This document shows, piece by piece, positions 552 to 23,698 of a DNA stretch of 64,000 nucleotides. Location: the NCBI GenBank assembly GCA_024742285.1, contig JANSYR010000011.1, forward strand, positions 124,001 through 188,000, read 5' to 3'. Source of the stretch: a bacterium. Lineage in GTDB: Bacteria > Myxococcota_A > UBA9160 > UBA4427. The notes under the pieces were generated by a model. It searched no databases, was not told the origin of the DNA, and saw only the letters and a list, made by a program, of their open reading frames with translations. The translations under genes were made by a program, and so were the position numbers. How positions within the stretch are numbered: position 1 is the stretch's first letter; every line of letters begins with the position of its first letter.

Positions 552-614
552 GTCAGATCTCCATGTGGTTAGCGTGCTACTCGGTCTTGCGGCGACGTCG
601 AGGTCACACAGTGA

Positions 615-7576: not shown

Positions 7577-7629
7577 TTCGGAGATCCTCGATGTCGTGGC
7601 CGCAGCGCTCGACCACGCCGCGGCTGCCT

Positions 7630-8067: not shown

Positions 8068-8071
8068 TCGA

Positions 8072-9235
8072 TCATCTCCTCAAGACGACGATGCTGCCGT
8101 CTCCGAAGTCTCCCCATCCCGTAACGAGGCCGACCTCGGCGTTGGCGACCTGAGTCGCGCCGCCGTCGCCTCGGAGCTGACGCGTGGCCTCGACGACGTG
8201 ATTCAGACCCCAGACGTGCGCTTCGGACAGAAGACCGCCATGCGTGTTGATGGGGCATTCGCCTCCGTGCTCGATCCTTCCGCCGCGGACGAAATCGCCT
8301 GCTTCGCCCGGGCCACAGAGCCCCAGGGCTTCGAGCTGGAGGAGGACCACATACGTGAAGCAGTCGTAGATCTGAAAGAAATCGACGTCCCCGACCTCGA
8401 TCCCCGCCATCCCTAGCGCTCGGGGGGCAGCGGAGTGCAGACCGAAGCGCAACATGTCAGGTCGGCTCGGGATATCGTCAGCAGGGTACGGGTGGCCTTC
8501 TGCGGCGCCCATCACGTACACCGGCGTATGGGGTCCGTTTCGCGCCCGCTCTGCGCTCGACAGCACGACCGCGCACGCACCATCCGTCTCGAGACAACAA
8601 TCGTTCAGGCGAAACGGCTCCGAGATCCAGCGTGAGTTGAGGTACCCCTTCATGTTGAGAGGTCGGCCCCGCATCACGGCCCGCTCGTTCGACTGGGCGT
8701 GCTTTCGGCACGCGATCGCAACGGCGCCGAGGCTCTCCTCCTGGATGCCGAAGGTCTTCATGTGTCGCGTGGCGATCCACGAGTACATCTGCACCGGCGT
8801 CGTCGCGCCGTAGGGCAGGTAGTACCCGCCGATCGCACGTCGCATCGCTGCGATCGAAATATTCTCTCGGCGTACACCCGGCTTCGGTCGCATGGCCGAG
8901 AAGCCGAGCCAGCCCACGACGACGACGACATGCGTGGCGATGCCTTCTGCGATTGCGAGTGCAGCAGTTTGGAGAGCAGACGTCGGACTCGCGCCGCCCA
9001 TCTGAACGGTTGCGGCGTATCGCAGGTCCTCGATCCCGAAATTCGCTGCGATCTCCTCGGCGGTGATATTCACAGGCGGTAGAACCAGGCCGTCGACTTC
9101 GTTGGGAAGCAGCCCGGCATCCGCGATGGCTATCCGCGCGGCATTCAGCATCAGCTCGGCCGAGCCTTGCTCGGCCCCTCGTACGTAGGGCGTTTCGCCG
9201 ATTCCCACGATCGCGGCGCGGTCTCGAATGCTCAA
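8072..9235 (-). CDS. SCP2/Ltp2-type thiolase-fold enzyme
   Basis: A 387-residue thiolase-superfamily protein. I place the start at a TTG preceded by GGAGAG, because the protein then begins [16 protein letters not shown], the normal family N-terminus; the frame stays open further upstream but looks non-coding. The C-terminal [17 protein letters not shown] contains the conserved HGG loop. The usual nucleophile region reads [12 protein letters not shown] without an obvious cysteine, as in the retro-aldolase Ltp2 group. Together with the adjacent DUF35 gene this suggests thiolytic or retro-aldol side-chain cleavage of a CoA ester (inference). Confidence 0.9.
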
Positions 9236-9366
9236 GGTCGAATTCTCTCCTACCGGCTTGGTCGCGACCTGCGATTCGGCGTGCGTCGATTCGATTCCGC
9301 CGCGCTCGGCCGTCGCGTCGCTCGCAATGCCACTTCGGCCGCGTTTCCGATTCGGTTCGATTATGC

Positions 9367-9376
9367 TAAATCGGAT
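9367..9376. promoter_or_regulatory. TAAATCGGAT motif in divergent promoter
   Basis: This 10-mer lies between the leftward thiolase and rightward nitronate-monooxygenase-like genes. An identical 10-mer occurs at 16559-16568 in the other divergent promoter of this cluster. It is flanked by an imperfect palindrome (TCGATTAT-GC-TAAATCGG). It may be an operator for a cluster regulator; two occurrences are weak evidence. Confidence 0.35.
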
Positions 9377-9417
9377 ACGACCGTGACACAAGGCGAATGG
9401 GACTCGAGGTCCACGCA

Positions 9418-10566
9418 ATGGAGACACGCATGACGCTGCGCACCAGAATCTGCGATCTGCTGGAAATCGAGGTCCCCATCGTACTCGCTGGAATGGGGGG
9501 CGCGGCGACGCCCGAACTCGCGGCGGCGGTTTCCAATGCCGGAGGGTTGGGCGTGCTCGGCGCGGCCGCCTGCGGGCCGAATCGATTGAGGCGTTGGATC
9601 GAGCGCACCCGGGAGCTGACGGACGAACCGTTCGGCGTCGACACATTGCTGCCGGCCTCCGTGCGGCGTGGTGCATTCGAAGCAAAGGCAGGCCCCTCGC
9701 CGCTCGATCAGCTTTCCGGCCACCAGGCCTTTGCACGCGAATTCCAGGAGCGCGAAGGCCTCGAGCCGCTCTCCGAAGATGATCGCGGTCCGCTCGGCGG
9801 CGGTGATGACCCCGACGCGGGCGGGCCCATGCCCTTCTCCAAGGAGTTCTTCGAGGCGCAGATGGCAGTGGTGATCGACGAACGTGTGCCCGTTTACGCC
9901 GCGGGTCTAGGGGATCCGGGTCCCTACGTGGATCAGCTTCACGCCAACGGCACCCGGGTCATGGCGGTCGTCGGGCAGACCTATCATGCGCGGAAGGTCG
10001 CAGAGTCCGGCGTCGACATCATCGTAGCTCAGGGACACGACGGCGGTGGACACAACGCGCCAGTCGGCACGATGGCGCTTCTTCCGCAGGTCAGGGACGC
10101 GATCGGTGATCTCCCGCTGCTCGGGGCGGGCGGGATCGGCGATGGTCGAGCGGTCGCGGCGGCACTCATGCTCGGTGCCGATGGGGCCTGGGTCGGGACC
10201 GCCTTCCTGGCGACCCAGGAGGCCGGCATTCACGACTTCCAGAAGCAGGCGCTCGTCGATGGGACGGATGCATCTACGACGATCTCCCGCAGCATCACGG
10301 GCAAGCCCGCGCGGATGATTCGCAGCAAGTGGTCGCAGGCCTGGGAGGAAGCCGACATCGATCCGCTTCCCATGCCCTATCAGTCGATGATCGCGATGCC
10401 CGTGCTCGGAGCTGCGACGCGCGATGCCCGCGCGGACGTGATTCCGGGCTTCGCGGGGCAGGGGCTCGGATTGATCGATCGTGTCCGGCCGGCTGCAATC
10501 GTGCTGGAAGAGATGGTGCGGGATGCCGAGAACGCGCTGGCGTCTGGCGGGGATCTTCTTGGGTAG
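9418..10566 (+). CDS. Nitronate monooxygenase / FabK-like flavoprotein
   Basis: A 382-residue FMN-dependent TIM-barrel protein of the nitronate monooxygenase (2-nitropropane dioxygenase) family, which also includes enoyl-ACP reductase FabK. The N-terminus [20 protein letters not shown] is typical. [20 protein letters not shown] carries the conserved His-containing loop, and [20 protein letters not shown] and [15 protein letters not shown] bind the flavin phosphate. Starts at 9397, 9418 and 9430 are all possible; 9418 has GAGG eight bases upstream. It is transcribed away from the thiolase operon. In catabolic clusters such proteins are often annotated as NMO with unproven substrates. Confidence 0.88.
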
Positions 10567-10602
10567 TCGGTCGCGTCCTGAGGGGCCGCGTCGCGTTCGA
10601 AA

Positions 10603-11988
10603 TCAGTCGTCTACGTACTCGTCGAGTGTCTGCCGCATGAGACGAATCCGGCTCTCCTGGTAGTTGCCGAGCCGGGCGCGTCGAGTCTTGGATGCACGCA
10701 GGCCGCGTTGTACGCGGGGCATCGTCTCGAAGTCCTGGTCCAGGATCGGGCCGAAGTATCCGAAGGCGTCGACGGATGACCAGAGCTGGTTCGCCTGCAG
10801 TTCGACGAGCGGCGCCGCCGGAGGACGAGCGGTGCCGTCAGGCACGGGGAGAAGAAGGCGAACCTCGAAATAACAACGGTTCGGATCGTCACCGAATGGA
10901 CGGACGCGATACACGAGTGGGGACCCTAGACCGCCGAAGATCACCAGATTCGGAAAGACGTGATACTGGATCACGTCCAGAATCTCGGTGTCACTCAAGC
11001 CGCTCGTGTCGATCCCCAAGTCGTTGCCGAGCCGTTCTCGCATCGCCGACACGATCACGTCTCGGGCCCGAGCTCCCTCGGGCACCGCGGAGGCCGCTTC
11101 GCAGAGTCCGAAGTTGGCAGCCTCGTCGAGAATCCGCTGCTCGCTGTAGGAGCCCTCGGTATGAGGGCTCGCTACACCGGACAGGTTGATCATTCGGCTC
11201 GTGTGCCGCTGTCCCGGCCAGACGTCGTACTGAGCGTTCGCGTCACCGAAGAGGGGTAGGGACTGGGGATGAATCCCGATGACGTGGAAGACTTCGATGA
11301 AGGCTTCGATCGCGATCTTCCAGTTGCATTCGAGGACCTTCCCGGCGTGCGCCGCAGTGTATCGGTCCTCGAGCGGCCACCTCGCGAAATCCTGCGGCAC
11401 GCGCTCGAGATACTCGGAGAGCGCTCCCGCGTCGCTGTCCAGGTTGACGAAGACGAAGCCTCCCCACTCGTCCACACGAGCCTCGGGAAGTCTGAGATCG
11501 TCCTCATTCAGATCGGGGAAGTCCCATGGACAGGTGATCTTTTCGACCTCGCCGTTCAGATTCCATGTGAAGCTATGAAACGGACATCTTATCCGGCTGA
11601 TGCGGCCGCCGTCTTCTCGAAGGAGCGTTCCGCGATGGAGGCAGGAGTTGTGGTAGGCCCTGATCTCGTCGGGCGTCGAGCGGATCACGATGAGAGAAGT
11701 CTCCCCGATCTCGTAGACGACGTGGTCGCCGACCTCCGGTATGTCTTCCTCCCGACAAGCGACCTGCCAGACGCGTGACCACATCCGCTCGAGTTCGAGT
11801 CGGTGGTAGTCGGGCGACGTGTAGACATTGGTGGGGAGCGCGCCACCGCCGATGCTTGTCGAGACGGTCTCTCTCAGGAACGCCGGCGGCTCGTTGGTGT
11901 CTTCCCGGTACACGTCCTGAACGGATTCACCCGGACAGCGGGCATCGCCATCCGCATCGGGCGTGCTTGACGATCGTGTAGGCTTCAT
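10603..11988 (-). CDS. Rieske non-heme iron oxygenase, large (alpha) subunit
   Basis: A 461-residue ring-hydroxylating oxygenase alpha subunit. The Rieske 2Fe-2S ligands are CLHRG and CPFH (CxH...CxxH, 16 residues between). The mononuclear iron site is EAFIEVFHVIGIH, with two histidines and a C-terminal acidic ligand expected. The start is set at the ATG with AAGGAG seven to eight bases upstream, although the frame is open further upstream. It would hydroxylate or demethylate a ring substrate using electrons from a reductase that is not encoded nearby. It is the last gene of the leftward operon, 159 bases after a thioesterase gene. Confidence 0.93.
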   Translation of the reverse strand: MKPTRSSSTPDADGDARCPGESVQDVYREDTNEPPAFLRETVSTSIGGGALPTNVYTSPDYHRLELERMWSRVWQVACREEDIPEVGDHVVYEIGETSLIVIRSTPDEIRAYHNSCLHRGTLLREDGGRISRIRCPFHSFTWNLNGEVEKITCPWDFPDLNEDDLRLPEARVDEWGGFVFVNLDSDAGALSEYLERVPQDFARWPLEDRYTAAHAGKVLECNWKIAIEAFIEVFHVIGIHPQSLPLFGDANAQYDVWPGQRHTSRMINLSGVASPHTEGSYSEQRILDEAANFGLCEAASAVPEGARARDVIVSAMRERLGNDLGIDTSGLSDTEILDVIQYHVFPNLVIFGGLGSPLVYRVRPFGDDPNRCYFEVRLLLPVPDGTARPPAAPLVELQANQLWSSVDAFGYFGPILDQDFETMPRVQRGLRASKTRRARLGNYQESRIRLMRQTLDEYVDD

Positions 11989-12147
11989 CGATAGACACTC
12001 CTTACCGTTCAGTTCGTGGCGGCCGCACGTCAATACAACGACTCGCAAAGCCCGGGTCCGCATCCCGGCCCCTCCCGCATTCGGCGTTGTCGATGGAGTT
12101 GGGTGAGGCTGGCTCTCATGTCGAGGGCGCGCGGGTCGCAAGTCTTG

Positions 12148-12900
12148 TTATTCGCGAGCGGTTCTCTCCTTCGCGATCGCCTCTGCGTCCGGGGAGAAAC
12201 GTTGTCTGCGAATGCGGCTCAAATCTTCGAATTTCTCGCGATCGATCGAGATGAAGAGGCCGGACGCCTCTGCGCAAAGCCGATCGCCTGCGTACATCTC
12301 GCCGCGAGTGCGGATTTTTCGGCCGCTACGGCCCTCGTAGCGCCCTTCGAATCTGAGCGTCGTTCGAATCGGAGTCGGGCTGCGGTAGCTCACTTCGAGA
12401 GTGCCGGTCATCCCCGGCGCGCCAGAGTAGATGCAGGCCATGCCCAGAAGCTCGTCGAATGCGGCCGCGATGAAGCCGCCATGGACGCAGCCGGGCGCTC
12501 CCTCGTACGCGTTGCCGAAGAAGCCCGTCCCCGAGACGAAGCCCGCGTCGGGATCTGGAGCGAACTGGAGTGGCGGCGCGATCGGATTGGCGCGGCCCAC
12601 GAGCGGGCTTCGGTCGTGGAAGTTCTCCATGCCGGCGAAGGCCATCTCGGCGATGCCACGCGGCTCGTCCTCAACGGGCTCCTTGCCGAAACGATCTGCG
12701 AGCCTCTGAATTTCGGCCGCGCCCGCCAGCAGCGCACTCGTGTCGGCGTCTGTCGCGCACAGTACGTCGAGCAGCGATCGCACCGATTCGGCTACGTCGC
12801 GCTTTGCTCTCCAGCTGTCAGGAACTTCCTCGTCGGCCTTGCGGAAACGGGCAATCCGTTCCGCGATCAAATCGGCGCTCATCGCTCCATCGTCGGTCAT
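12148..12900 (-). CDS. Hotdog-fold thioesterase (PaaI/4HBT-like), long form
   Basis: A 250-residue protein whose C-terminal half is a hotdog thioesterase domain: YEGAPGCVHGGFIAAAFDEL holds the conserved HGG/Asp active-site segment, and GTLEVSYRSPTPIRT is the typical central strand. The N-terminal 100 residues form a helical extension seen in some actinobacterial and proteobacterial relatives. It would hydrolyse a CoA thioester. It lies 21 bases after the P450 gene. An alternative start is the Met at residue 7. Confidence 0.85.
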   Translation of the reverse strand: MTDDGAMSADLIAERIARFRKADEEVPDSWRAKRDVAESVRSLLDVLCATDADTSALLAGAAEIQRLADRFGKEPVEDEPRGIAEMAFAGMENFHDRSPLVGRANPIAPPLQFAPDPDAGFVSGTGFFGNAYEGAPGCVHGGFIAAAFDELLGMACIYSGAPGMTGTLEVSYRSPTPIRTTLRFEGRYEGRSGRKIRTRGEMYAGDRLCAEASGLFISIDREKFEDLSRIRRQRFSPDAEAIAKERTARE

Positions 12901-12921
12901 TCGAACAGCTCTGCTCCTCGA

Positions 12922-14184
12922 TCAGGCCGCGTTCGCCGCGGGGAGCAGGCGATAGCGGATCGGCATGTGCTTGATCCCTCCGACGACGCTCGACCGAAGT
13001 CGCTCGACGGGGCCCGCGAGCTCCACGTCGGTGAGTCGTGCGAGCAGATGGCGGAAGATCACCTGCAGCTCGAAACGGGCGACGTGGGCACCCAGGCAGA
13101 CGTGCTCTCCGATTCCGAATGCGATGTGGCGATTCGGCTGTCGGTCGATCCGAAAGCGATCAGCGTCCTCGAAGATCGACTCGTCCCGATTTGCAGACGG
13201 ATAGAAGAGCGTGAGCGTCTCACCCTCGCGGATCGTCTGCCCGTGCAGCTCGACGTCGCGCACGGGAGTCCGGCAGAAATGAATCACCGGTGAGGTCCAA
13301 CGCAAGACCTCCTCGACGAGGGATCGGTTGAGGTCCGGTCGCTCACGGGCGAGCGCCAGCTGATCCGGATTCTCGATCAGTGCGAGGAGACCTCCGCTCG
13401 CGGCGTTGCGGGTCGTTTCGTTTCCTGCGACGACGATCAGGAAGTAGTACGACATCAGCTCGAAGACGGGAAGCTCTCCGCCGCCGATCTTCGAGTGGGT
13501 GAGCACGCTGACGAGATCGTCTTTCGGGCGTCCCCGCCGTTCGTTCGTCAGGTCCTGGAAGTAGGAGAAGAGGGCGAGCCGGGCGGATTGCACCGTCTCT
13601 TGAGGCGTCTTCCCCTCCTCGCGGTATTCCGGATCGGCCGCCCCTAGGACGCGGTTCGTCCAGTCGAAGAGCAGTTCCCAATCCGACTCCGGGACGCCGA
13701 GCATCTCGGCGATCACCCAGATCGGAATCTTGGCGGAGAACTCTCGCACGAAGTCCACCTCGGACTCCTCCCCGTCCGCGAAGATGTCGTCGAGAGCGCG
13801 CGTTGCGATCGCGTCGATCCGCTGAGCGATGTCTCGAAGGGCTCGGGGCGTGAATCGCTTGTTCACCAGGGATCGGTAGTCGGCATGATCGGGGGGATCC
13901 ATGTTGAGGAGCATCCGAACCGGCAGCTCGCCCGATTCTCCCGTGAGTGTGTCTGCGCCGACGACGAGTCGAGGCGAGTTCAAATAGAGGTCCGGTCGTC
14001 GCGAGACCGCGACGATGTCCTCGTGGCGCGTCAACGCCCAGAACGGCTGGAGCGCGAGGCGATCGAAATGATAGACGGGCGCCTCACGCCGAAGAAGTCG
14101 AAAGGCCTCGTGTGGATAGCCATGCTCGGCATAGTGGACCGGGTCGATCAGTTCAACATCGTCGAGTTTCATTGCGGCACTCAT
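12922..14184 (-). CDS. Cytochrome P450
   Basis: A 420-residue class I bacterial P450. The oxygen-binding I-helix is VVAGNETTRNAASG, the K-helix ExxR is EVLR, and the heme loop is FGIGEHVCLGAHVARFEL with Cys as axial ligand. The start MSAAMKLDDVELIDP follows GAAGGAGTGAGATCA, a strong ribosome-binding site; an in-frame extension to 14643 overlaps the thioesterase gene and looks non-coding. The gene begins 5 bases after the thioesterase. It resembles CYP125/CYP142-like catabolic enzymes in general layout, but the substrate is not determinable. Confidence 0.94.
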   Translation of the reverse strand: MSAAMKLDDVELIDPVHYAEHGYPHEAFRLLRREAPVYHFDRLALQPFWALTRHEDIVAVSRRPDLYLNSPRLVVGADTLTGESGELPVRMLLNMDPPDHADYRSLVNKRFTPRALRDIAQRIDAIATRALDDIFADGEESEVDFVREFSAKIPIWVIAEMLGVPESDWELLFDWTNRVLGAADPEYREEGKTPQETVQSARLALFSYFQDLTNERRGRPKDDLVSVLTHSKIGGGELPVFELMSYYFLIVVAGNETTRNAASGGLLALIENPDQLALARERPDLNRSLVEEVLRWTSPVIHFCRTPVRDVELHGQTIREGETLTLFYPSANRDESIFEDADRFRIDRQPNRHIAFGIGEHVCLGAHVARFELQVIFRHLLARLTDVELAGPVERLRSSVVGGIKHMPIRYRLLPAANAA

Positions 14185-14189
14185 TGATC

Positions 14190-14636
14190 TCACTCCTTCG
14201 GATCGCGGATCAGGACCGTGCCCTGTGCAATGCAGGCGAGCCGGTCTGCGTTTCGAACTTCGATGCGCACGACTGCGGTCGCACGCGTCATAGAGATGAT
14301 CTCCGCGTCGGCGACCACAGCTCCCGTGCTCACTGGAGCGAGGTAGTTGACCTTGAACTCGGTCGTCGCTGCCCACTGGCCGGGCTTCATGTGCGGATAG
14401 CAGACGCAACCCAGGACGTGATCGCAGACGGCCGCGAGGACGCCGCCGTGCATGTTGCCGAACGGCGTGAGGAGTTCCGGCCTGACCTCGAGCTTCGCCC
14501 TGAGGTGGCCGGGTTCGAACTCCGCAAACTCGACACCGAGGAATCCGGGCAGACCCTCGAGCTTCTTGCTCGCGTCGATGAATCCCTTTGCCACGGATGC
14601 GTCGAAGCTCGCTCGTAGTCGATCGCTGGTACTCAC
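14190..14636 (-). CDS. PaaI-family hotdog thioesterase
   Basis: A 148-residue single-domain hotdog thioesterase. PFGNMHGGVLAAVCDHVLG holds the conserved GG plus Asp catalytic segment, and WAATTEFKVNYLAPV is the substrate-channel strand. It starts with GTG. It is sandwiched between the XRE-cupin regulator (31 bases) and the P450 (5 bases) in the leftward operon. It probably releases CoA from a pathway intermediate or dead-end thioester. Confidence 0.9.
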   Translation of the reverse strand: MSTSDRLRASFDASVAKGFIDASKKLEGLPGFLGVEFAEFEPGHLRAKLEVRPELLTPFGNMHGGVLAAVCDHVLGCVCYPHMKPGQWAATTEFKVNYLAPVSTGAVVADAEIISMTRATAVVRIEVRNADRLACIAQGTVLIRDPKE

Positions 14637-14667
14637 GCTCCATCTCCTCTCGGTCGTGCGTGACCGG

Positions 14668-15279
14668 TCATCGCTTGTCCTTCTGCACCGTTTGCACGTG
14701 CAGGTGCAGCTTCTTCCGGAGTCCGCGCGGAAAGTTGCCCGCGATCAGGAACCGGGCGATCCGTCGGCTCGGGTTCCACCATCGATGCGGAATGCCGGCC
14801 TTGAAGTGGAGAGAGTCACCCTGGCCGAGTTCGAACTCCTCGTCGCCGACGGAAAAGTGGATTTGGCCTTCCTCGCAGACGATGACCTCTTCGCCGTCGT
14901 ATCCGTGTGCGCCGCTACCACTCGAAAAGCCGGGATAAACGGTCACTCGCCACATCTCGATCGCCGGATCGAAGAGGTCTCCCGAGAGCCGCTCGACGCG
15001 GAGCTTCTGTCGGGAGTCGATCACGGAGTGCTCCTTCGAGCGCATGAAGACGACGTCGGCCTCCTCGGGCTCAGAACTGAGGAGCTCCGCGGGCCTGCGA
15101 TCCAGGCCGCGAGCAATTTTCAGTGCGATCGCGATCGACGGGACCATCTGGCCGGTCTCGACCTTCTGGATCGTACTTGGCGCTACGTCGCACCGATTCG
15201 ACAGGTCCTGAAGCGAGAGCCCGAGTTCGTCGCGCCATTGTCGAACGCGAACGCCAACGAATTCAATGTCTTCTTCCAT
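14668..15279 (-). CDS. XRE-type HTH regulator with C-terminal cupin
   Basis: A 203-residue regulator with an N-terminal helix-turn-helix (VRQWRDELGLSLQDLSNRCD, VAPSTIQKVETGQMVPSIAI; residues about 8-60) and a C-terminal cupin barrel (GYDGEEVIVCEEGQIHF, LGQGDSLHFKAGIPHRWWNP) that would bind a small ligand. Such proteins often repress local catabolic genes. It is embedded in the operon between an amidohydrolase and a thioesterase gene, so it probably controls cluster 1, possibly through its divergent promoters at 9236-9417 and 16515-16639 (inference). Confidence 0.92.
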   Translation of the reverse strand: MEEDIEFVGVRVRQWRDELGLSLQDLSNRCDVAPSTIQKVETGQMVPSIAIALKIARGLDRRPAELLSSEPEEADVVFMRSKEHSVIDSRQKLRVERLSGDLFDPAIEMWRVTVYPGFSSGSGAHGYDGEEVIVCEEGQIHFSVGDEEFELGQGDSLHFKAGIPHRWWNPSRRIARFLIAGNFPRGLRKKLHLHVQTVQKDKR

Positions 15280-15323
15280 GACTTCTCCCTGGTACGTCTG
15301 TCGCGTCCCCGCGCTCTTCTCGG

Positions 15324-16514
15324 TCAGGCCGGTAGCGGGATCCGGTAAAGCTCCGCCGCATTGTCCTGGAGGACTCGCTTGCGGACGTGCGGGGTAAGCC
15401 CTCCCAGAACCTCCGTGACGTGTTCACGATTGTCCGGATACAGACAGGTGGGGTGCGGGAAATCGGTCTCGAAGAGCACGTTCTCGACGCCAACGTCTTC
15501 GATGAGCTTTTTTGGGGCCGTCTTCTCGAACCAGAAGCAGCCGTACACCTGACGCTTGAAGTACTCCGAGGGAAGCATCTTCAGCTTGCCGTTGGCGTTC
15601 GCGCCCGTCTCGTGCATCTCGTAGTCGAGGGACTCGAGCAGGAAGGGCAGCCATCCGATCCCGCTCTCGACTGAGACGACTTTGACCTTCGGGAACCGCT
15701 CCAGTACGCCGCTGTAAAGTAGGTTCCCGAGCACGCGCGCGTTCTCGAGGAAAAGCGCGGTCGAGCCGAGTGCGAGCTTCTCCGGGAGGTCGGTCGATTG
15801 CCAGGCAGCGCGGCCAAACATGTTGAAGGAAGTCTGACTCGCACCGATGTGGAAGTTCACGGGCATCTCGAGTTCGCCGCACACGTCCCAGAACGAATCC
15901 CATGCCGGATCGCCGAGGTCGGGCAAGCCAACGGAATCGGGATCGCTGCACATAACGATCCCGCGAAGCCCCATCTCGTGCGAGCGTCGGATTTCGGCCG
16001 CACACGCCTCGATGTGCCACCAGGGGACAAGTGCCATCGGGAAGATCCGCTCGTCCGATCCACGCTGGATCTCGACCATCGCGTCGTTGTAGACCGTTGC
16101 GCAGGCGAGGCGGAGTTCCTCGTCCTCGATCTGGGTGAAATTCTGGTTTCCGAAGCCAGCCACGTTCGGGTAGATCACTTGCGCGCCAATGCCGAGCTCA
16201 TCCATCAGGCGGACGCGCGCCTTCATGTCATAGGAGGCAACGTGAACATCCTCTTGTGACCAGCCGAAGAACTCGATCCCGTCGGATTTCTGGCCATCGC
16301 TCCGAACGACGCTCACCGGCGTGGCCGCGCCCAGATCGATGTCGCCGTCGACGACCCAGTGTTTCGCGCCGTCGATCTCCTTGACCTGGGGCAGCCGCGC
16401 GCGGATGGCACTGGGGGCGTTCGCCGTCCACAGATCGTGGGGTTCCGAGATATGTGTGTCCGCGTCGATGACGTGCAAGCCATCGAAGATCGTGTCCATG
16501 TCCGCAGTGCTCAT
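15324..16514 (-). CDS. Amidohydrolase-2 family metal-dependent hydrolase
   Basis: A 396-residue TIM-barrel protein of the amidohydrolase-2 family (relatives include ACMS decarboxylase and gamma-resorcylate decarboxylase). The first metal site is VIDADTHISEPHDLW, a conserved His lies in PVNFHIGAS, and the late metal-binding Asp is in LFETDFPHPT. Family members hydrolyse or decarboxylate ring-derived acids. It is the first gene of the leftward operon and diverges from the alcohol dehydrogenase gene. It is one of four such proteins in the window. Confidence 0.9.
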   Translation of the reverse strand: MSTADMDTIFDGLHVIDADTHISEPHDLWTANAPSAIRARLPQVKEIDGAKHWVVDGDIDLGAATPVSVVRSDGQKSDGIEFFGWSQEDVHVASYDMKARVRLMDELGIGAQVIYPNVAGFGNQNFTQIEDEELRLACATVYNDAMVEIQRGSDERIFPMALVPWWHIEACAAEIRRSHEMGLRGIVMCSDPDSVGLPDLGDPAWDSFWDVCGELEMPVNFHIGASQTSFNMFGRAAWQSTDLPEKLALGSTALFLENARVLGNLLYSGVLERFPKVKVVSVESGIGWLPFLLESLDYEMHETGANANGKLKMLPSEYFKRQVYGCFWFEKTAPKKLIEDVGVENVLFETDFPHPTCLYPDNREHVTEVLGGLTPHVRKRVLQDNAAELYRIPLPA

Positions 16515-16558
16515 TGGGGTTCCCCTCGTCCGGATTGACTGGCTATGATCGGGGACGT

Positions 16559-16568
16559 TAAATCGGAT
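16559..16568. promoter_or_regulatory. TAAATCGGAT motif in divergent promoter
   Basis: Second exact copy of the 10-mer at 9367-9376, here in the intergenic space between the leftward amidohydrolase operon and the rightward alcohol dehydrogenase operon. Possible binding site for a shared regulator such as the XRE-cupin protein; chance identity is not excluded. Confidence 0.35.
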
Positions 16569-16639
16569 TGGAAACTTTGTCTACCGAGCGGGCGGCCGCA
16601 CGAAGACGTGGTCGAAGAAGGATCCAGAGGAGGCGGGTC

Positions 16640-17740
16640 GTGTCGGGAACGCCGAAGAAGACGCGAGCGATCGTCCAGACTGGGCCGCGGAGTCTGGAGC
16701 TGCGGGATCTTCCGGTTCCGGAAATCGGCGCGGACGATGCCCTGCTTCGGGTCGAGGCCTGCGGCATCTGTGGCAGCGACGTGGAGCAGTACCACGGGGC
16801 GTTGCCACTTCCATTTCCGGTGATCCCCGGTCACGAGCCGCTCGGCCGGATCGAGTGCATCGGCGATCGCGCCGCCGAGCGATGGGGCGTCGACGTGGGC
16901 GATCGCGTCGCCGTCGAGACAATGCTGTCCTGCCGTTTCTGCCCCCCCTGTCTCCGAGGCGACTATCACCTTTGCCGTGCTCGACAGATCTATTCCTACA
17001 TCCCGTTGGATCGACCACCGGGGCTATGGGGGGCCTATGCGGATCTGATGTACCTCGCGCCGACCTCGATCGTTCATCGCGTCGACCCAACGCTTCCACC
17101 CGAACTCGCTGTGATGTTCAACCCGCTGGGCGCTGGGTTCCGATGGGCGGTCGAGATCCCTCGCACGCAGCCCGGTCAGAGCGTCGTGGTCCTCGGCCCC
17201 GGCCAGCGTGGCCTGGCGAGCGTGATCGCCTGCCGCTCGGTCGGCGCCGGCCAGATCGTCGTGACGGGCCTCGAGGCAGACGCCGAGAAGCTGTCGCTGG
17301 CCCGCACGTTCGGCGCCGACGTGACCGTCGACGTCGAGAACGAAGACGCGCGTAGTCGGATTCTCGAGGCGACGGACGGCGGTGCGGACGTCGTCGTGGA
17401 TGTGTCAGCCTACGCGACGTCTCCAGTGGCCGAGGCGCTCGACTACGTGCGACCCGGCGGAACGATCGTCCTGGCCGGAGTGAAGGGCCACGTTCCGATC
17501 CCCGAATTCATCTCGGACAAGATCGTGATGAAGGAGATCGCTATACGAGGAGCGATCGGCGTGACGCAGTCGGGCTATTCCGAAGCGATTCGACTGATCG
17601 AGTCCCGGCGTGTACCTCTCGAGAAGATGCACACACACGACTTCGCGCTGGGAGACGCCGAGGAGGCGATCCGGACACTGGCAGGCGAGATGGATGGAAC
17701 GCGCTCCATCCACTCGTGTCTCCTGCCAGGACTGGGCTGA
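16640..17740 (+). CDS. Zinc-dependent medium-chain alcohol dehydrogenase
   Basis: A 366-residue MDR-superfamily dehydrogenase. Catalytic zinc ligands lie in CGICGSDVEQYHG and GHEPLG; the structural zinc site is CRFCPPCLRGDYHLC. The Rossmann fold is VVVLGPGQRGLASVIA. I choose the GTG start because GAGGAGG lies 6-7 bases upstream and the protein then begins at the usual place (KKTRAIVQTGPRSLELRDLP). It would oxidise an alcohol intermediate with NAD(P)+. It starts the rightward operon with the thiolase gene 17 bases downstream. Confidence 0.93.
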   Translation: MSGTPKKTRAIVQTGPRSLELRDLPVPEIGADDALLRVEACGICGSDVEQYHGALPLPFPVIPGHEPLGRIECIGDRAAERWGVDVGDRVAVETMLSCRFCPPCLRGDYHLCRARQIYSYIPLDRPPGLWGAYADLMYLAPTSIVHRVDPTLPPELAVMFNPLGAGFRWAVEIPRTQPGQSVVVLGPGQRGLASVIACRSVGAGQIVVTGLEADAEKLSLARTFGADVTVDVENEDARSRILEATDGGADVVVDVSAYATSPVAEALDYVRPGGTIVLAGVKGHVPIPEFISDKIVMKEIAIRGAIGVTQSGYSEAIRLIESRRVPLEKMHTHDFALGDAEEAIRTLAGEMDGTRSIHSCLLPGLG

Positions 17741-17757
17741 GGCGAGAAAGGAGCTCG

Positions 17758-18906
17758 ATGTCGAATCCGAGGGCACCGGTCATCGTGGGCATCGGTCGCA
17801 CGGTCTATAGCCGAAGCTCGGGTCGGACGACGCTCGCGATGGCCGCGGAGGCCGCTCGGTTCGCGCTCGACGACGCCGGGCTCACCGCGGCGGATGTCGA
17901 CGGAGCGGCGACCTATCAGGTCGGCGATTCGGCGGGGCCGATGAGAGTGTCGGACGCGATCGGGTCGCCCGGTCTCCGCTGGAATCTGGATCTAATGGGC
18001 GGCGGCAACTATGCGTCGAGCGTCGTCACGAATGCAGCGATGGCCCTCGAGTCGGGCGCCTGCGAGACGGCAGTCGTCTACCGCTCGCTCAACGGGCGGA
18101 GCGGTCGGCGATTCGGTCGTGCGGATGGGGCTCGCAGGGTCGGCGGGCCGATGCAGTTCACGGCGCCTCAAGGCTATTCGACGCCACCGCAGTGGATGGC
18201 GATGTGGGCGCGGGAGCATCAACGGGTCTACGGAACGACCTGTGAAGATCTCGGCGAGATCGCGGTAACCCAACGACGGCACGCCTCTCGGAATGAGCAC
18301 GCCGTCCATCGCAAGCCCATCACGATCGATGACTATCTCGCCGCCCGCTGGATCAACGAGCCGCTCCGGCTCTACGACTGCGCGCTCGAGGTCGACGGCG
18401 CCGTGGCCCTCGTGCTCACCACGGCGGAGCGGGCAAGAGACACGCGCCAGCCACTCGTTTCGCTCCTCGCGCATGCCGAATTCACGGGGGCCGGCGGTTC
18501 CTGGGAGCAGTGGCCCGACCTAACGACGATGTACTCGAAACACGTGGCGCCCGACCTCTGGAGTCGGAGTGGCCTGGTCCCCGCCGACGTAGACGTTGCC
18601 TGCATGTACGACTGCTTCACCTACACCGTGATGGTCACGCTCGAGGAGTTCGGTTACTGCGGACGCGGCGAGGTGGGCGACTTCTTCCGCGAAGGAAGAG
18701 CGACGTACGGCGGCGAAGTCGTGGTCAATCCACATGGCGGACTCCTCTCGGAGGGATATATCCACGGTCTGAACCACAGTTTCGAGGCGGTCCTTCAGCT
18801 ACGTGGCGACGCGGGCGTCCGGCAAGTCGATGCGGCGGAGGTCGCGCTGGTCACCGCCGGTGCGGGGCCCTATGGAGGCGCCATGCTGCTAGCGGTGTCT
18901 CGATGA
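17758..18906 (+). CDS. SCP2/Ltp2-type thiolase-fold enzyme (second copy)
   Basis: A 382-residue thiolase-fold protein, paralogous to the enzyme at 8072-9235. It starts at ATG after AAAGGAG with APVIVGIGRTVYSRSSG. The nucleophile region reads LMGGGNYASSVVTNAA with no evident Cys, and the C-terminal loop is NPHGGLLSEGYIHGLNHSF. The lack of the cysteine is shared with Ltp2-type aldolases that act with DUF35 partners. Its stop codon overlaps the start of the DUF35 gene (ATGA). Probable role: thiolysis or retro-aldol cleavage of a beta-hydroxy or beta-keto acyl-CoA (inference). Confidence 0.9.
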   Translation: MSNPRAPVIVGIGRTVYSRSSGRTTLAMAAEAARFALDDAGLTAADVDGAATYQVGDSAGPMRVSDAIGSPGLRWNLDLMGGGNYASSVVTNAAMALESGACETAVVYRSLNGRSGRRFGRADGARRVGGPMQFTAPQGYSTPPQWMAMWAREHQRVYGTTCEDLGEIAVTQRRHASRNEHAVHRKPITIDDYLAARWINEPLRLYDCALEVDGAVALVLTTAERARDTRQPLVSLLAHAEFTGAGGSWEQWPDLTTMYSKHVAPDLWSRSGLVPADVDVACMYDCFTYTVMVTLEEFGYCGRGEVGDFFREGRATYGGEVVVNPHGGLLSEGYIHGLNHSFEAVLQLRGDAGVRQVDAAEVALVTAGAGPYGGAMLLAVSR

Positions 18907-19358
18907 GCGACCGGGCGACGATGCTTCCGCCGCAGCCCCAGCCGGACTTCGATACCGAAGGATTCTGGAAGGCCACGGCGTCCGGACGGGTCGAGCTGTG
19001 TCGATGCGTGGAATGTGGCCTCTGGCATCATCCGCCGCTCGAGCGATGCCGTGCGTGCGCGGGCAAAACCACTTTCGCGCCGATCGCCGGAACCGGTCGT
19101 CTGCGAAGCTTCATCGTGGTCCAGCACGGCGCGGTGCCCGGATACCTCGACGCCATCCCCTACGTCGTCGGGTTGGTCGAGCTCGACGAGCAGTCGGGGC
19201 TCCGTCTGGCCGGTCGCGTCCTCGACGTGCGGCCCGGCGAGCTGGCGTGCGGTGCCCGCGTCCGGAGTGAGGTGATCTCGCTGCCGCCAGGAGAATTTTC
19301 GGTGGTCGGTTTTCGAATCGAAGGTGTTCCAGACAATCGAGAAGAGGAGGTCGCATGA
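18903..19358 (+). CDS. DUF35 (Zn-ribbon/OB-fold) protein, thiolase partner (second copy)
   Basis: A 151-residue protein with a zinc ribbon (CVEC ... CRAC near residues 35-52) and an OB-fold (GTGRLRSFIVVQHG, IPYVVGLVELDEQ). It is paralogous to the protein at 7630-8067. ATGA overlap with the thiolase gene on one side and with the carboxymuconolactone-decarboxylase-like gene on the other indicates coupled translation. Expected to form a stable complex with the upstream thiolase. Confidence 0.92.
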   Translation: MSDRATMLPPQPQPDFDTEGFWKATASGRVELCRCVECGLWHHPPLERCRACAGKTTFAPIAGTGRLRSFIVVQHGAVPGYLDAIPYVVGLVELDEQSGLRLAGRVLDVRPGELACGARVRSEVISLPPGEFSVVGFRIEGVPDNREEEVA

Positions 19359-19921
19359 GGGGAGGTGTTCGGGCGGAACCGCTTGGGGAGGAGGAGGCAG
19401 CTCAGATCGCCGAACAGCTCGGGTTGAACCCGGCGTTCGCCTCGCTCTCCGTCTTTCGGGTGTTGCTGCGGACGCCCCATCTCGCGAAGTCGGTGGCGGG
19501 GCTCCTCGAGACGCTCCTCCGAGGCGAATACCTGGACGGCAAGCTTCGCGAACTCGTGATTATGCGGATCGGGTGGGTCACGGGCTCGTGCTACGAGTGG
19601 ACGCAGCACTGGCGGGTGGCGCGCATGATGGGAATCTCCGAAGAGACACTGCTCGGCGTCCGGGATTGGCAGAGCCATGCCGGCTATGGAGCCAGAGAGC
19701 GAGCCGTGCTGGCTGCGACCGACGAGACAATCGATACGGGGACCATTTCGCCCGAGACGTGGCAGGCATGTCGCGACTGCCTCGGCAGAGACGAGGTGCT
19801 GATCGAGCTCGTCGCGGCGATCGGTAACTGGCGACTCTTCTCTTCGCTGCTGCGCAGTCTGGAGATTCCTCTCGAGGACGGCGTGGAGGCATGGCCGCCC
19901 GACGGGCGAGAGCCGACGTGA
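19355..19921 (+). CDS. Carboxymuconolactone decarboxylase / AhpD-like protein
   Basis: A 188-residue all-helical protein of the CMD/AhpD superfamily. Recognisable segments are LDGKLRELVIMRIGWVTGSC, YEWTQHWRVARMMGISEE and LLGVRDWQSH. The AhpD-type CxxC pair is absent: the position reads CYEWTQH, with one Cys and a His, more like gamma-carboxymuconolactone decarboxylase relatives of unknown substrate. It overlaps the DUF35 gene by 4 bases and is the last gene of the rightward operon. Confidence 0.87.
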   Translation: MRGGVRAEPLGEEEAAQIAEQLGLNPAFASLSVFRVLLRTPHLAKSVAGLLETLLRGEYLDGKLRELVIMRIGWVTGSCYEWTQHWRVARMMGISEETLLGVRDWQSHAGYGARERAVLAATDETIDTGTISPETWQACRDCLGRDEVLIELVAAIGNWRLFSSLLRSLEIPLEDGVEAWPPDGREPT

Positions 19922-20220
19922 TGCCGGTGCTTTGACACGTTTGGTGTGGGTCGGCCCGGTAGGGCAGCGATTAGCCTGGGTGCGGGCTGCTTGTCAGCTC
20001 AATGCGTATCGAGGCCGGCGACAGCGCCGCCCGAAGTTCCCCGCCAATCCGCAATCGCCGACCGCCCCGCGTTCTTTCAACGTTGGGCCGTCGTCTTGCT
20101 TTCTGACAGAATGAACCACGCCGGCGTCGTGGGGTTCGTGGGGCTCCTTCCTGAGGGGGACGTAGCGGCTTTCGAGGCCAGCAGCGAAGTCCGCGATAAA
20201 GCAGTGGGTCCCGCGTGATT

Positions 20221-20408
20221 TGCCTCTCCTTGCCTCTCAGTGCACATCCTTGCCTAGTAAGACCGGACCAGGAATCAAGAGAAGCTCAACGAATCCAGAT
20301 GGTTGCAAGATCTCCAGAATTACTTGCCAACGTGAGGGTCGCCAGTTCGAATCTGGTCTCGTGCTCCACACACGAAAAACCCGTCGCCCAAAGGGCGGCG
20401 GGTTTTTT
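20221..20408 (+). repeat. Repeat copy A: coding-like block, tRNA-Gly-like 3' half, terminator
   Basis: A 111-base block (20221-20331) is homologous to 23384-23494, with 22 of 37 codons giving the same amino acid and 11 of those changed silently. It runs into a segment spaced like the 3' half of tRNA-Gly(GCC): TTGCCAA (20324-20330), 5+5 bases, then T-arm GCCAG-TTCGAAT-CTGGT, CTCGTGC, T and CCA ending at 20368. The anticodon stem does not pair and no matching 5' acceptor (GCACGAG) is found, so this is not a functional tRNA. A terminator hairpin follows. Confidence 0.7.
20380..20408 (+). terminator. Rho-independent terminator after repeat copy A
   Basis: Stem CCCGTCGCCC / GGGCGGCGGG with loop AAA and a T6 tract. 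The A-run before the stem could make it bidirectional. Confidence 0.85.
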
Positions 20409-20460
20409 GTGTCTGGGGCACGGCCCAGGTCCTTGGATTGGACCCTCGGGTTTAAGAGCA

Positions 20461-20613
20461 TTGCCAACTTGAGGGGGAGCTGCGAGCGAATAGCGAGCAG
20501 CGAGTGGAGCGTCCTGCGCGGCGAACGCCGCGCGGGGCGCGACCGGACGCCAGTTCGAATCTGGTCTCGTGCTCCACCTACGAAAGAAGCCGTCCCACAA
20601 AGTGGGGCGGCTT
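20461..20613 (+). repeat. Repeat copy B: tRNA-Gly-like tail interrupted by structured insert, terminator
   Basis: TTGCCAA (20461-20467), 5 bases and GGGGG are followed by a 71-base insert (20478-20548), then the same 28-base tail as copy A (20549-20576, T-arm loop TTCGAAT, ending CCA). The insert holds two hairpins: GCTGC/GCAGC at 20479-20501 and GCGCGGCG-aa-CGCCGCGC at 20516-20533. A third hairpin (20587-20613) follows the CCA. Sequence before 20461 is only weakly similar to copies A and C. Confidence 0.65.
20587..20613 (+). terminator. Terminator-like hairpin after repeat copy B
   Basis: Stem AAGCCGTCCCAC / GTGGGGCGGCTT (one G-T pair) with loop AAA, followed by TCTTCG. A weaker T-tract than after copy A. 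Confidence 0.7.
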
Positions 20614-20823
20614 TCTTCGTACAGGGGCTTGGACTCGGTCGAAGTTCGCCAATACCTCGTCCTCGCCGCCGGCGGTGGGAAGCTCGGGCGGCCGTCCGGG
20701 TCGAAGCCCGTGGCCTCCGCGCTGCCCAGGGACTAGCGGCCCGAGAAAATCGCGCTGCGTGAACCGCTTCACGGAGCGGCCGCGGCTCCCGTCCGAATCT
20801 GTCCTCGAGACCGGGAGGACGGC

Positions 20824-23217
20824 ATGAAGACGAGACGCGTTTCACAAGAAGTTCGGGAGCGGGTGCTCGAGCGCATCCGCGGCGCCCTCGCGACCGCGGT
20901 CGCGATCGGCGTCTGTCTCGCCGCGTCGAGTGCCTTCGGCGCGACCTTCTCGGTCAACTCGACCGCCGACACCGGCGACGCCACGCCCGGGGACGGTGCC
21001 TGCTTCACCGGGCTCTTCATCCAGATCGCTCCCGGCGTCTTCGCCGGCCAGTGCACCCTGCGGGCCGCGATCGAAGAGGGAAACGCGCTCGCCGGCGCCG
21101 ACGTCGTCGAGTTCGCGGCCACGCTGCCCACGGTCGCGGGCGTCGTCGAGATCTTCCCGACCAGTCTCCTGCCGACGATCAGCGATCCGCTCACAATCGA
21201 TGGCTATACGGCGCCCGGCTACGCCCTGCTCGACCCGAATGCCAAGCCGATCATCAACATCGGCGGCGGACAGGCTGGCGGTGGGGCGGGCCTCGTCGTC
21301 ACCTCCGGCGCGACGGGCAGCGTGATCCGCGGCCTCGCGATCCACGGATTCGACCTCTCCGGCATCATCGTGACGACCGGGACGCGCGTCGACGCGGACG
21401 TCGCGATCGAAGGCTGCCACATCGGCATCTCCCGGGGCGTCTTCTACCCCGGCAACGGGGCCTACGGCATCGAGGTGCGTGCCTCCCGTTCCGTGCGGAT
21501 CGGCAAGTCGTGCGGGGCCGGGGCCTGCACGGGCCGTCGCAACGTGATCGCGAGCAGCGGGTCGCACGGGATCCGCCTGGCGAACAGCCTCTTCGTCGAC
21601 GTGAACGGCAACCTAATCGGGACGGATACGTTCGGTTCCTCGACCTTCGTCCCCTTCGGCGGCAGCACGCCGAACGGCGGTTACGGCGTCGCGCTCGTCG
21701 ACGGGTCGACCCGGAACCAGATCGGCTCTGCGCTGGAAGGCGGGGGCAACCTGATCTCGGGCAATGGCCTCGGCGGCGTGCTCATCGAGCCCGCGGTGGC
21801 GAACACCGTGATCGGGAACACGATCGGGACCAACCTCGCAGGGACTTCGGCGCTGGGGAACCAGGGAAGCGGCATCGAGATCGTCGATGGCTTCGGGCAT
21901 CTGGTGCGAAACAACCTGATCTCGGCCAACGATGGCGCCGGGATCGACTCCGAAGGGGCGAACCGGATCGACTTGAACATCGTCGGCCTGAACAGGGACC
22001 TCGATGACACGCTCGGGAACGGTTCGCACGGGATTCAGGTCGACGGGGTCGATGCGACCATCGAGGGCAACATCGTCGGCGGCAACGCCGTGAACGGGAT
22101 CCTCGCCTTTGGTGCCGATCACACGATTCTCCGGAACACGGTCGGCACCAACGCCCAGGGCGACGATCTCGGGAACGACTGGAACGGGATCATCGTGAGT
22201 GGCGCGCAGGGCGTGGTGGTCGGGGAACCCGGCCTCGGCAACATCGTCGGCCATCAGCGCATCGGCATCGGTTTCTCGTTCTCGTCCGCGCAAAACTTCG
22301 TACTGGGGAACTGCGTGGGTACGCTGCCCAGTGGGACGCCCATTCCGAACTCGATCGCGGGGGTCTACGTCTCCAACTCCGACGACGTCGAGATCGGGAC
22401 GATCGACGGCCTGGACAACGGCGGGGGTAACGTGATCGGTCACAACGCGGCGCCGGGCATCCAGCTCGTCTCCGGCGGTTCGGCGAACACGGGCAGTCGG
22501 GTTCGGGGCAACTGGATCGGCGTGCTGCCCGACGGGACGCCAGCGCCCAACGCCGACGGCGGTGTCCAGGTCCAGGGGAGTGGCAACACGATCGGCGCGG
22601 CGCTCGGCGCGCTGGACGAGATGGTCGCGGCCGCGGCCAACGTGTTCGCGCACAACGAAGACTCGGCGATCCGCGTCTTTGAATCCGCGCAGGGCACGAC
22701 CGTGCGGGGGAACGTGTTCTTCGAGAGCTTCGACTATCTGCCCGTCGATCTCGGCGACGACGGGGAGACGGACAACGACCTCGGCGATACCGACGTCGGC
22801 GCGAACCAGCTCCAGAATCTGCCGCTGATGGATCCGGTGTTCACGGAGTTCAATCCGATCACCGGCGACCTCGAGGTCCGCTATCTCGTCGACGCCGACC
22901 CGCTCGAGGCGAGCTACCCGCTCAAGGTCGATTTCTACCTGCGCACGACGCCGGACGGGCGGGCGGACGTCTACGTCGGGTCCGACCTCTACCCGGCGAC
23001 CGCTGCGAACACCTATCGACTCATCGGCGTCGTGCCCCAGATCGAGGGCGACCTCGACGGCATGCTCGTGGCGACCGCGACGGATGCGGACGGCAATACG
23101 AGCGAGCTCACCCGTCAGTCCGTTCCCGTCCCCGAGCCGGGCGCGGCCGGTATGCTCGTCGCCGGGTGCCTCGCACTCACGGGGATCACTCGCGCGCGTG
23201 ACTGCCGACGAGTGTGA
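20824..23217 (+). CDS. PEP-CTERM-anchored secreted parallel beta-helix protein
   Basis: A 797-residue exported protein. A signal peptide spans about residues 1-40 (positively charged, then ATAVAIGVCLAASSAFGA). Next comes the CTLRAAIEEGNAL motif common at the start of bacterial beta-helix surface proteins. Long repetitive stretches rich in G-N-x-I-G-T-N (NVIGTD, NLISGNGLGG, IGNTIGTNLAG) are typical of right-handed parallel beta-helices with pectate-lyase-like folds. The C-terminus has the exosortase signal: VPEPGAAG, a hydrophobic stretch and a basic tail (RARDCRR). Good ribosome-binding site GGGAGG. Bracketed by repeat copies B and C. Substrate or adhesion role unknown. Confidence 0.92.
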   Translation: MKTRRVSQEVRERVLERIRGALATAVAIGVCLAASSAFGATFSVNSTADTGDATPGDGACFTGLFIQIAPGVFAGQCTLRAAIEEGNALAGADVVEFAATLPTVAGVVEIFPTSLLPTISDPLTIDGYTAPGYALLDPNAKPIINIGGGQAGGGAGLVVTSGATGSVIRGLAIHGFDLSGIIVTTGTRVDADVAIEGCHIGISRGVFYPGNGAYGIEVRASRSVRIGKSCGAGACTGRRNVIASSGSHGIRLANSLFVDVNGNLIGTDTFGSSTFVPFGGSTPNGGYGVALVDGSTRNQIGSALEGGGNLISGNGLGGVLIEPAVANTVIGNTIGTNLAGTSALGNQGSGIEIVDGFGHLVRNNLISANDGAGIDSEGANRIDLNIVGLNRDLDDTLGNGSHGIQVDGVDATIEGNIVGGNAVNGILAFGADHTILRNTVGTNAQGDDLGNDWNGIIVSGAQGVVVGEPGLGNIVGHQRIGIGFSFSSAQNFVLGNCVGTLPSGTPIPNSIAGVYVSNSDDVEIGTIDGLDNGGGNVIGHNAAPGIQLVSGGSANTGSRVRGNWIGVLPDGTPAPNADGGVQVQGSGNTIGAALGALDEMVAAAANVFAHNEDSAIRVFESAQGTTVRGNVFFESFDYLPVDLGDDGETDNDLGDTDVGANQLQNLPLMDPVFTEFNPITGDLEVRYLVDADPLEASYPLKVDFYLRTTPDGRADVYVGSDLYPATAANTYRLIGVVPQIEGDLDGMLVATATDADGNTSELTRQSVPVPEPGAAGMLVAGCLALTGITRARDCRRV

Positions 23218-23383
23218 GGTCCGGCATGATGGAACCGCGAACGACGGCTTCTTCGACCTCTCGACGTCTCGCGATCGCCCCCGGCAGGGGCTGACGTGCC
23301 CCGGCGGGGCATGCTTGTCGGCTCGTGACAGATCGGCGGTGCCGAGAACCGGGCTTGTTCTTCGCGCGCTCCGCGATTCGTCC

Positions 23384-23646
23384 TGCCTTTCCTTGCCTCT
23401 CAGTGCCGGTCACTGTCTGGTTCGAGCGGACCAAGAGCCGAAGCAACCTCAATCATTCCGGATGATTGCGGGATTCCCGGCCTGGCTCGCCAACTCGGCG
23501 GGGGAGGAGGCGAAGCCTCCGAGTGCGAGCGATCAGCGAGTGGAGCGGCCTTCAGGCCGCGACCGGACGCCAGTTCGAATCTGGTCTCGTGCTCCGTATG
23601 AGCCCTCGGATTCTCTCGTGTATACGAGAAGTCCGGGGGGGCTCAT
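23384..23646 (+). repeat. Repeat copy C: coding-like block, interrupted tRNA-Gly-like tail, long hairpin
   Basis: The 111-base block 23384-23494 matches copy A in frame without gaps. TCGCCAA (23487-23493) is followed by a structured insert and the 28-base tail at 23569-23596, identical to copies A and B except that it ends CCG instead of CCA. The insert has two hairpins: GGAGGC-gaa-GCCTCC (23506-23520) and GCGGCCT-tc-AGGCCGC (23545-23560). They sit where copy B has hairpins of different sequence. A long imperfect hairpin follows the tail. Confidence 0.68.
23598..23646 (+). terminator. Long hairpin after repeat copy C
   Basis: ATGAGCCC at the left pairs with GGGCTCAT at the right, and TCTCGT pairs with ACGAGA around the loop GTAT. 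There is no clear T-tract, so termination is uncertain. Confidence 0.55.
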
Positions 23647-23698
23647 GTTAGGCCACGGTGACGGATAGCTGACCTGAGTCGGAGCTCCTGAATTTCGC

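What the first reader, a model, noticed from the sequence alone, without database searches (positions are those of the whole stretch)
20221..23646. Three dispersed repeats ending in a tRNA-Gly-like 3' end plus terminator hairpin
At 20341, 20549 and 23569 the same 28-base tail occurs: a T-arm with loop TTCGAAT, a 7-base acceptor-like strand and CCA (CCG in the third copy). Each is followed at once by a strong hairpin. In copy A the spacing from TTGCCAA to CCA equals that of tRNA-Gly(GCC) exactly, from my memory of that tRNA, yet no matching 5' half exists. These may be attachment-site scars of elements that integrated at a tRNA gene, or a tRNA-derived small RNA family with its own terminators. 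I know no described element with this layout.
Basis: partly seen in the sequence, partly recalled or inferred. Interest (0 to 1): 0.7.

Follow-up and report, generated by a model that had tools for sequence, protein, structure and literature searches.

The report
Stacked island scars at tRNA-Gly
The three repeats are the leftover ends of mobile DNA pieces that inserted one after another into the bacterium's single tRNA-Gly(GCC) gene 46 kb away, which is a known kind of event; two of the scars also carry an odd hairpin insert that recurs at the same spot of tRNA fragments in related bacteria.

Summary
The intact tRNA-Gly(GCC) lies 46.3 kb upstream of copy A, outside the window (C11:97958-98033), followed by a terminator, three TGGTCCGG repeats and a tyrosine integrase. 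Copy A repeats the tRNA's last 45 nt, anticodon loop to CCA, and is preceded by CCGGACCA and TTGCCTCTC repeats: it is the right attachment site (attR) of a ~46-kb island. B closes a 208-bp remnant, C a 3.0-kb integrase-less passenger with a beta-helix gene. Relatives show the same hotspot: synteny holds left of the tRNA and is largely lost on its right. The genome has a second stack at tRNA-Arg(CCG) with two integrases. Accreted tRNA islands and integrase-less tandem elements are known. I found no description of the structured insert in B and C: a covarying hairpin with a near-constant loop (GAGCGATnAGCGA) in the variable-loop position of 3' halves of tRNA-Gly, Arg(TCG) and Arg(CCG) across an order. 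None of 13 resolved hairpin-tailed elements has an integrase, against 4 of 7 plain-tailed ones. Its role is unknown; I rate it a new variant of a known kind.

The parts
1..20323 (.). Right-hand part of the ~46-kb island (island = G000:C11 ~98034-144323)
   Evidence: Bounded by intact tRNA-Gly + tyrosine integrase on the left (L001/L006) and attR A on the right; not annotated gene by gene
20220..20270 (+). P-arm-like repeats of attR A: TTGCCTCTC (20220, 20230), CCGGACCA (20263-20270)
   Evidence: CCGGACCA is the reverse complement of the three TGGTCCGG beside the integrase; same block before plain tails of G005 and G006
20324..20368 (+). attR A: last 45 nt of tRNA-Gly(GCC), anticodon loop to CCA
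   Evidence: exact identity to C11:97989-98033
20372..20411 (+). Terminator hairpin behind A
   Evidence: (-31.0 kcal/mol)
20416..20460 (+). Remnant of element left end (P'-like) ending GGACCCTCGGGTTTAAGAGCA
   Evidence: a similar stretch (GTAGACCCTCGGGCTTAAGAGC) lies downstream of the intact tRNA in G012 and GATTAAGAGCATGCCAAC in G005:C135
20461..20475 (+). Anticodon-arm remnant of B (TTGCCAACTTGAGGG)
20476..20548 (+). Structured insert of B: stem1 20476-20504 (loop GAGCGAATAGCGA), stem2 20509-20540
   Evidence: covariation
20549..20576 (+). attR B: T-arm, acceptor 3' strand, CCA
20579..20621 (+). Terminator-like hairpin behind B
   Evidence: -29.1 kcal/mol
20824..23217 (+). Passenger gene, 797 aa, CSLREA-like N-terminus + right-handed beta-helix
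   Evidence: Pfam PF13229 E 7e-9; TIGR04214 E 4e-5, just below its cut-off
23383..23433 (+). P-arm-like repeats before C (TTGCCTCTC 23393, CGGACCA 23427)
   Evidence: spacing to the tail equals that of A once the ~65-nt insert is removed
23487..23503 (+). Degenerate anticodon-arm remnant of C (TCGCCAACTCGGCGGGG)
23504..23568 (+). Structured insert of C: hairpin 23506-23520, loop motif GAGCGATCAGCGA 23527-23539, stem2 23545-23560
23569..23595 (+). attR C: T-arm and acceptor 3' strand (CCG instead of CCA)
23598..23646 (+). Hairpin behind C
   Evidence: -31.0 kcal/mol; a similar hairpin follows the intact tRNA-Gly of G011, G027 and G028

Best explanation
The three tails are right attachment sites (attR) of mobile elements that integrated one after another into the single tRNA-Gly(GCC) gene, each pushing the older 3' fragment and its terminator outward. 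Copy A is the attR of a ~46-kb island whose tyrosine integrase sits next to the regenerated tRNA; the crossover was in the anticodon loop (TTGCCAA). B closes a 208-bp internally deleted unit, and C a 3.0-kb passenger that has an attachment site but no integrase. Shown: intact tRNA, identity block, integrase, repeats at both ends, conserved left flank, and a second locus with the same layout. Inferred: order of events, deletion origin of the 208-bp unit, and mobilisation of the passenger in trans or by accretion. The extra hairpin insert in B and C is real and recurrent, but its role is unknown.
For: The own-genome search finds one more exact copy, an intact tRNA-Gly(GCC) 46.3 kb upstream on the same strand. 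The identity block of A starts at the anticodon loop and ends at CCA. A tyrosine integrase (PF00589, E 6e-26) points towards the tRNA, with a small HTH ORF behind it. Three TGGTCCGG repeats lie beside the integrase, and the reverse complement, fully in A (CCGGACCA) and 7 of 8 bases in C (CGGACCA), lies before the tails. Upstream genes up to UDP-glucose dehydrogenase-tRNA-Gly are syntenic across the family, while no gene just right of the tRNA is shared with the stretch held around the window; in one other genus the right side is conserved, so the site looks uninterrupted there. Genomes where a tRNA-Gly(GCC) 5' half was found have one of it (two in G022), but up to 8 tails. A second stack exists in the same genome: tRNA-Arg(CCG), an integrase beside it, a tail at 41.9 kb with a second integrase, further tails at +17.4 kb and +0.28 kb.
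Against: No integrase lies in A-B or B-C, so those segments fail the strict tandem-island definition. An empty site in the same species could not be shown. The right boundary of the whole stack is not fixed: the hairpin behind C resembles another element's left end. Whether a 208-bp element can move at all is doubtful; it may be only a deletion scar. The hairpin inserts in B and C are not predicted by this model.
Confidence: 0.92

Rival explanations
1. The hairpin-bearing tails B and C belong to a separate class of small integrase-less elements whose attachment site contains the structured insert as a working part, recombining at or near the T-loop or borrowing the island's integrase. (This concerns the insert; it adds to, and does not exclude, the scar reading.)
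For: All 13 resolved elements that end in a hairpin tail lack an integrase and are small (0.18-0.28 or 2.3-4.3 kb), while integrase-bearing ones have plain tails (4 of 7; Fisher p about 0.007, my arithmetic). Stem1 covaries. Intact tRNA is kept directly left of such elements (G012, G005:C80), which an anticodon-loop crossover with this attP would not give.
Against: No integrase was found that belongs to this class; the elements are often decayed; some plain-tailed elements also lack an integrase; small sample from MAG contigs; groups were compiled by hand.
Confidence: 0.3
2. The structured insert is a small hairpin repeat (palindromic or REP-like element) that secondarily invaded displaced tRNA 3' halves, which tolerate insertion, at the variable loop. 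(Also about the insert only.)
For: Same position in fragments of three tRNAs; further palindromes stack in the T-loop region; three tandem hairpin units next to tRNA-Phe in the own genome; GTAG foot before stem2 resembles REPs (from memory).
Against: G000, G005 and G006, which carry many copies, have no Y1_Tnp/RAYT. The best 22 model hits all lie in tRNA halves, few elsewhere. Two G049 sites share a near-identical insert but have different left flanks.
Confidence: 0.4
3. Tails are a tRNA-derived small RNA family with its own terminators.
For: Each tail ends in a strong hairpin, A with a U-tract; stem1 shows compensatory changes.
Against: No promoter-like site and no Rfam family over threshold; tail identity is explained by the tRNA; plain and insert-bearing tails differ in the rest; G.U versus A.C counts do not decide the strand (11 versus 6).
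Confidence: 0.06

Closest known systems
Genomic islands in tRNA genes, Islander type (PMC4383910)
   Same: Intact tRNA at one end, displaced 3' fragment in the same orientation at the other, tyrosine integrase beside the tRNA, anticodon-loop crossover class
   Different: Segments A-B and B-C have fragments but no integrase; B and C fragments carry a hairpin insert
Dehalococcoides ssrA tandem islands (PMC3146451) and cis-mobilizable elements (CIMEs)
   Same: Multiple direct repeats of an RNA gene's 3' end in a row, several segments without integration module, explained by accretion
   Different: tRNA-Gly and tRNA-Arg instead of tmRNA, tyrosine instead of serine recombinase, no hairpin insert described there in the passages read
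E. coli tyrT 178-bp repeats / RtT RNA (from memory)
   Same: Short tandem units that each contain the 3' end of a tRNA
   Different: No Rfam match here; here the units are tied to integrase, arm repeats and islands
Palindromic repeats inserted in RNA genes (Rickettsia palindromic elements; REP/RAYT), from memory
   Same: Small hairpin-forming inserts, some reported in stable RNA genes
   Different: Here at a fixed position of tRNA 3' halves, and no RAYT in the genomes richest in copies

Membership tests
tRNA-integrated genomic island (Islander definition) | intact tRNA gene at one end | tested here: met
   tRNA-Gly(GCC) C11:97958-98033
tRNA-integrated genomic island (Islander definition) | displaced 3' fragment, same orientation, at the other end | tested here: met
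   copy A, 45 nt identical
tRNA-integrated genomic island (Islander definition) | integrase gene inside the island | tested here: met
   PF00589 E 6e-26, L006:13865-15211
tRNA-integrated genomic island (Islander definition) | empty site in close relatives | tested here: inconclusive
   left flank syntenic, right side conserved only within another genus
tRNA-integrated genomic island (Islander definition) | excision / circular form | not testable with these tools
   needs PCR or reads
Tandem island array (each member with own integrase) | integrase in A-B and B-C | tested here: not met
   only a beta-helix gene in B-C, nothing of that kind in A-B
Tandem island array (each member with own integrase) | integrase in the two large members of the tRNA-Arg(CCG) stack | tested here: met
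   L157 and L160 integrases
Cis-mobilizable element (CIME) | flanked by att sites, no integrase | tested here: met
   segment B-C, 3.0 kb
Cis-mobilizable element (CIME) | moved with a neighbour by accretion | not testable with these tools
   inferred only
RtT RNA / tyrT repeat | Rfam model match | tested here: not met
   (best other matches far below gathering scores)
Integron gene cassette / attC | IntI-type integrase and attC pairing conserved | tested here: not met
   the island's integrase is a phage-type SAM/catalytic protein (IntI-specific features not examined separately); pairing of insert and tail is not kept for Arg tails
REP / RAYT element | RAYT (Y1_Tnp) in the genome | tested here: not met
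   none in G000, G005, G006
tRNA gene | complete tRNA fold at A, B or C | tested here: not met
   ARAGORN 0 genes

The most novel reading that the evidence does not exclude
Across an order of bacteria, a class of integrase-less passenger elements (about 0.2 to 4 kb) carries attachment sites in which a conserved, covarying hairpin module (near-constant loop GAGCGATnAGCGA) is set into the variable-loop position of a tRNA 3' half. The module is a working part of the site, for instance marking it for a helper integrase or blocking competing integrases, so that the elements stack at tRNA-Gly and tRNA-Arg genes like cassettes.
Probability: 0.25. Interest if true: 0.7.

Novelty: new variant of a known kind. 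Interest (0 to 1): 0.45.

Why it matters
It turns an odd repeat into an ordered record of successive insertions at one tRNA gene in a little-studied lineage, and shows two parallel stacks in one genome. If the hairpin insert is a working part of the attachment site, it would be a new kind of recombination site and a route by which single genes without an integrase spread; that can be tested by simple excision assays with and without the insert.

Tried and rejected
attC-like pairing between insert and tail: seen in folds of Gly copies, but GGAGC is constant irrespective of the tail and Arg tails do not pair with it, so rejected. REP/RAYT: resemblance of GTAGGAGC-hairpin, but no Y1_Tnp in the copy-rich genomes. 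Insert as a dispersed repeat in the own genome: only two strong copies next to tails by BLAST; the covariance models added C2, C10 and C18. A strict pattern for stem1 was too narrow, one hit. Strand bias of wobble pairs: 11 G.T versus 6 C.A, not decisive. A tRNA-Arg(CCG) 5' half joined to the hairpin in G009:C108 first looked like a disrupted native gene, but the contig end repeats the upstream region, so it may be a duplicate copy. Literature searches for the insert gave nothing; one key paper (Williams 2002) is not held.

Full report
Observation. The 27-mer tail is present exactly at 20341, 20549 and 23569 on the + strand, followed by CCA, CCA and CCG and then strong hairpins. ARAGORN finds no tRNA in the window. 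The window is contig 11, 124001-188000, of a 6.55-Mb, 56-contig assembly.

The target gene. Copy A equals the GCC gene's last 45 nt, from the anticodon loop TTGCCAA to CCA; to the left of the loop identity stops. That is the signature of an anticodon-loop crossover, one of the described tRNA sub-sites (PMC4383910).

The island. Directly behind the tRNA come a terminator hairpin, three TGGTCCGG repeats and, convergent on the tRNA, a tyrosine integrase with a 92-aa HTH-like ORF behind it (named by eye). Before A lie TTGCCTCTC twice and CCGGACCA, the reverse complement of the repeats; C has TTGCCTCTC and CGGACCA with the same spacing once a ~65-nt insert is removed. I read these as arm-type integrase sites (inference). 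The same blocks stand before plain tails in G005 and G006, and the triple repeat stands behind a tail of G005 beside an integrase remnant.

Comparison across relatives. Of 30 family genomes, 25 show a tRNA-Gly(GCC) 5' half, one per genome except two in G022, while tails number up to 8. Genes left of the tRNA, ending in UDP-glucose dehydrogenase, are syntenic in nearly all loci compared; no gene just right of it matches the same side in the own genome. Within one other genus the right side is conserved, so the site looks uninterrupted there. The own genome holds a second stack at tRNA-Arg(CCG): an integrase beside the tRNA, a tail 41.9 kb on with a second integrase, a tail 17.4 kb further, and another after 279 bp.

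B and C. Between A and B lie 208 bp: terminator, a stretch that resembles the left end of the element behind the tRNA of G012 (GTAGACCCTCGGGCTTAAGAGC), an anticodon-arm remnant, the insert and tail B. I infer an internally deleted element. Between B and C lies a 797-aa beta-helix gene and no integrase. Comparable integrase-less segments of 2.3-4.3 kb elsewhere carry MNT/HepT-type genes, a TOTE-type primase-helicase, a FGE-sulfatase-domain protein, DUF3604 or an IS3-like transposase. Integrase-less tandem elements at an RNA gene are described as possible CIMEs in Dehalococcoides (PMC3146451).

The insert. In B and C ~65 nt lie between the anticodon-arm remnant and the T-arm. Related inserts were found by covariance models in 18 of 80 order genomes. 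The best 22 hits all sit in the variable-loop position of a tRNA 3' half: Gly(GCC), Arg(TCG), Arg(CCG) or close to these; part of these were training sequences and the model includes the GAGGG flank, which favours such places. Weaker hits elsewhere include three tandem units next to tRNA-Phe (C10) and one at C18 of the own genome. Stem1 covaries: 7 of 10 pairs change on both sides, score 0.505 against 0.221 in shuffles (0 of 500) and at most 0.175 when slid; about half of the rows came from a structure-based search and I aligned them by eye, which leans towards pairing.

Association. I could resolve both ends for 13 hairpin-tailed elements: G000 B, C and Arg-4; G012 two; G005:C80, C135 two, C10; G003:C9; G033; G060; G054. 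In none did tblastn with three integrases, or Pfam on the larger ORFs, show a tyrosine or serine integrase. Of 7 plain-tailed ones (G000 A, two G000 Arg, G005:C135c, G011, G028, one in G014), 3 have a full integrase and 1 a remnant. Fisher p is about 0.007, computed by hand on a hand-made list, so it is a lead and not a proof.

Verdict. The insert is a real and unexplained addition, hence new variant of a known kind.

Noticed in passing
G000:C2:129220-188861 (L153-L160): Second tandem island stack in the same genome at tRNA-Arg(CCG), with two full integrases (63% identical to each other, 43-44% to the tRNA-Gly one) and a hairpin-bearing tail 279 bp after a plain tail.
   Followed up: yes
G000:C10:241379-241510 (L143): Three tandem copies of the hairpin unit (stem1-GAGT-stem2, period about 50 nt) next to tRNA-Phe, not inside a tRNA fragment.
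   Followed up: partly
G009:C108:73329-73668 (L216, L258): 5' half of tRNA-Arg(CCG) joined directly to a hairpin-bearing 3' part beside tRNA-Val; the contig end repeats the upstream region, so a duplicate copy is likely.
   Followed up: partly
G012:C132 (L111, L128), G005:C10 (L148, L161): Additional palindromes such as ATCGATTGCATGCAATCGAT set in just before the T-loop of tRNA-Gly tails, partly in tandem.
   Followed up: no
G014:C129 (L114): Six tRNA-Gly tails in 19 kb, three of them with conserved left flanks; cargo includes a wax ester synthase and an AAA/STAND-like ATPase.
   Followed up: partly
window 20237-20845, 20286-20600, 23533-23901 (-); L006:13865-15211 (-): Spurious ORFs arise antisense to the tails (RPDSNWRP, ARDQIRTGV), and the integrase ORF reads on through the terminator into the tRNA, so the end of that ORF lies outside the element.
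   Followed up: no
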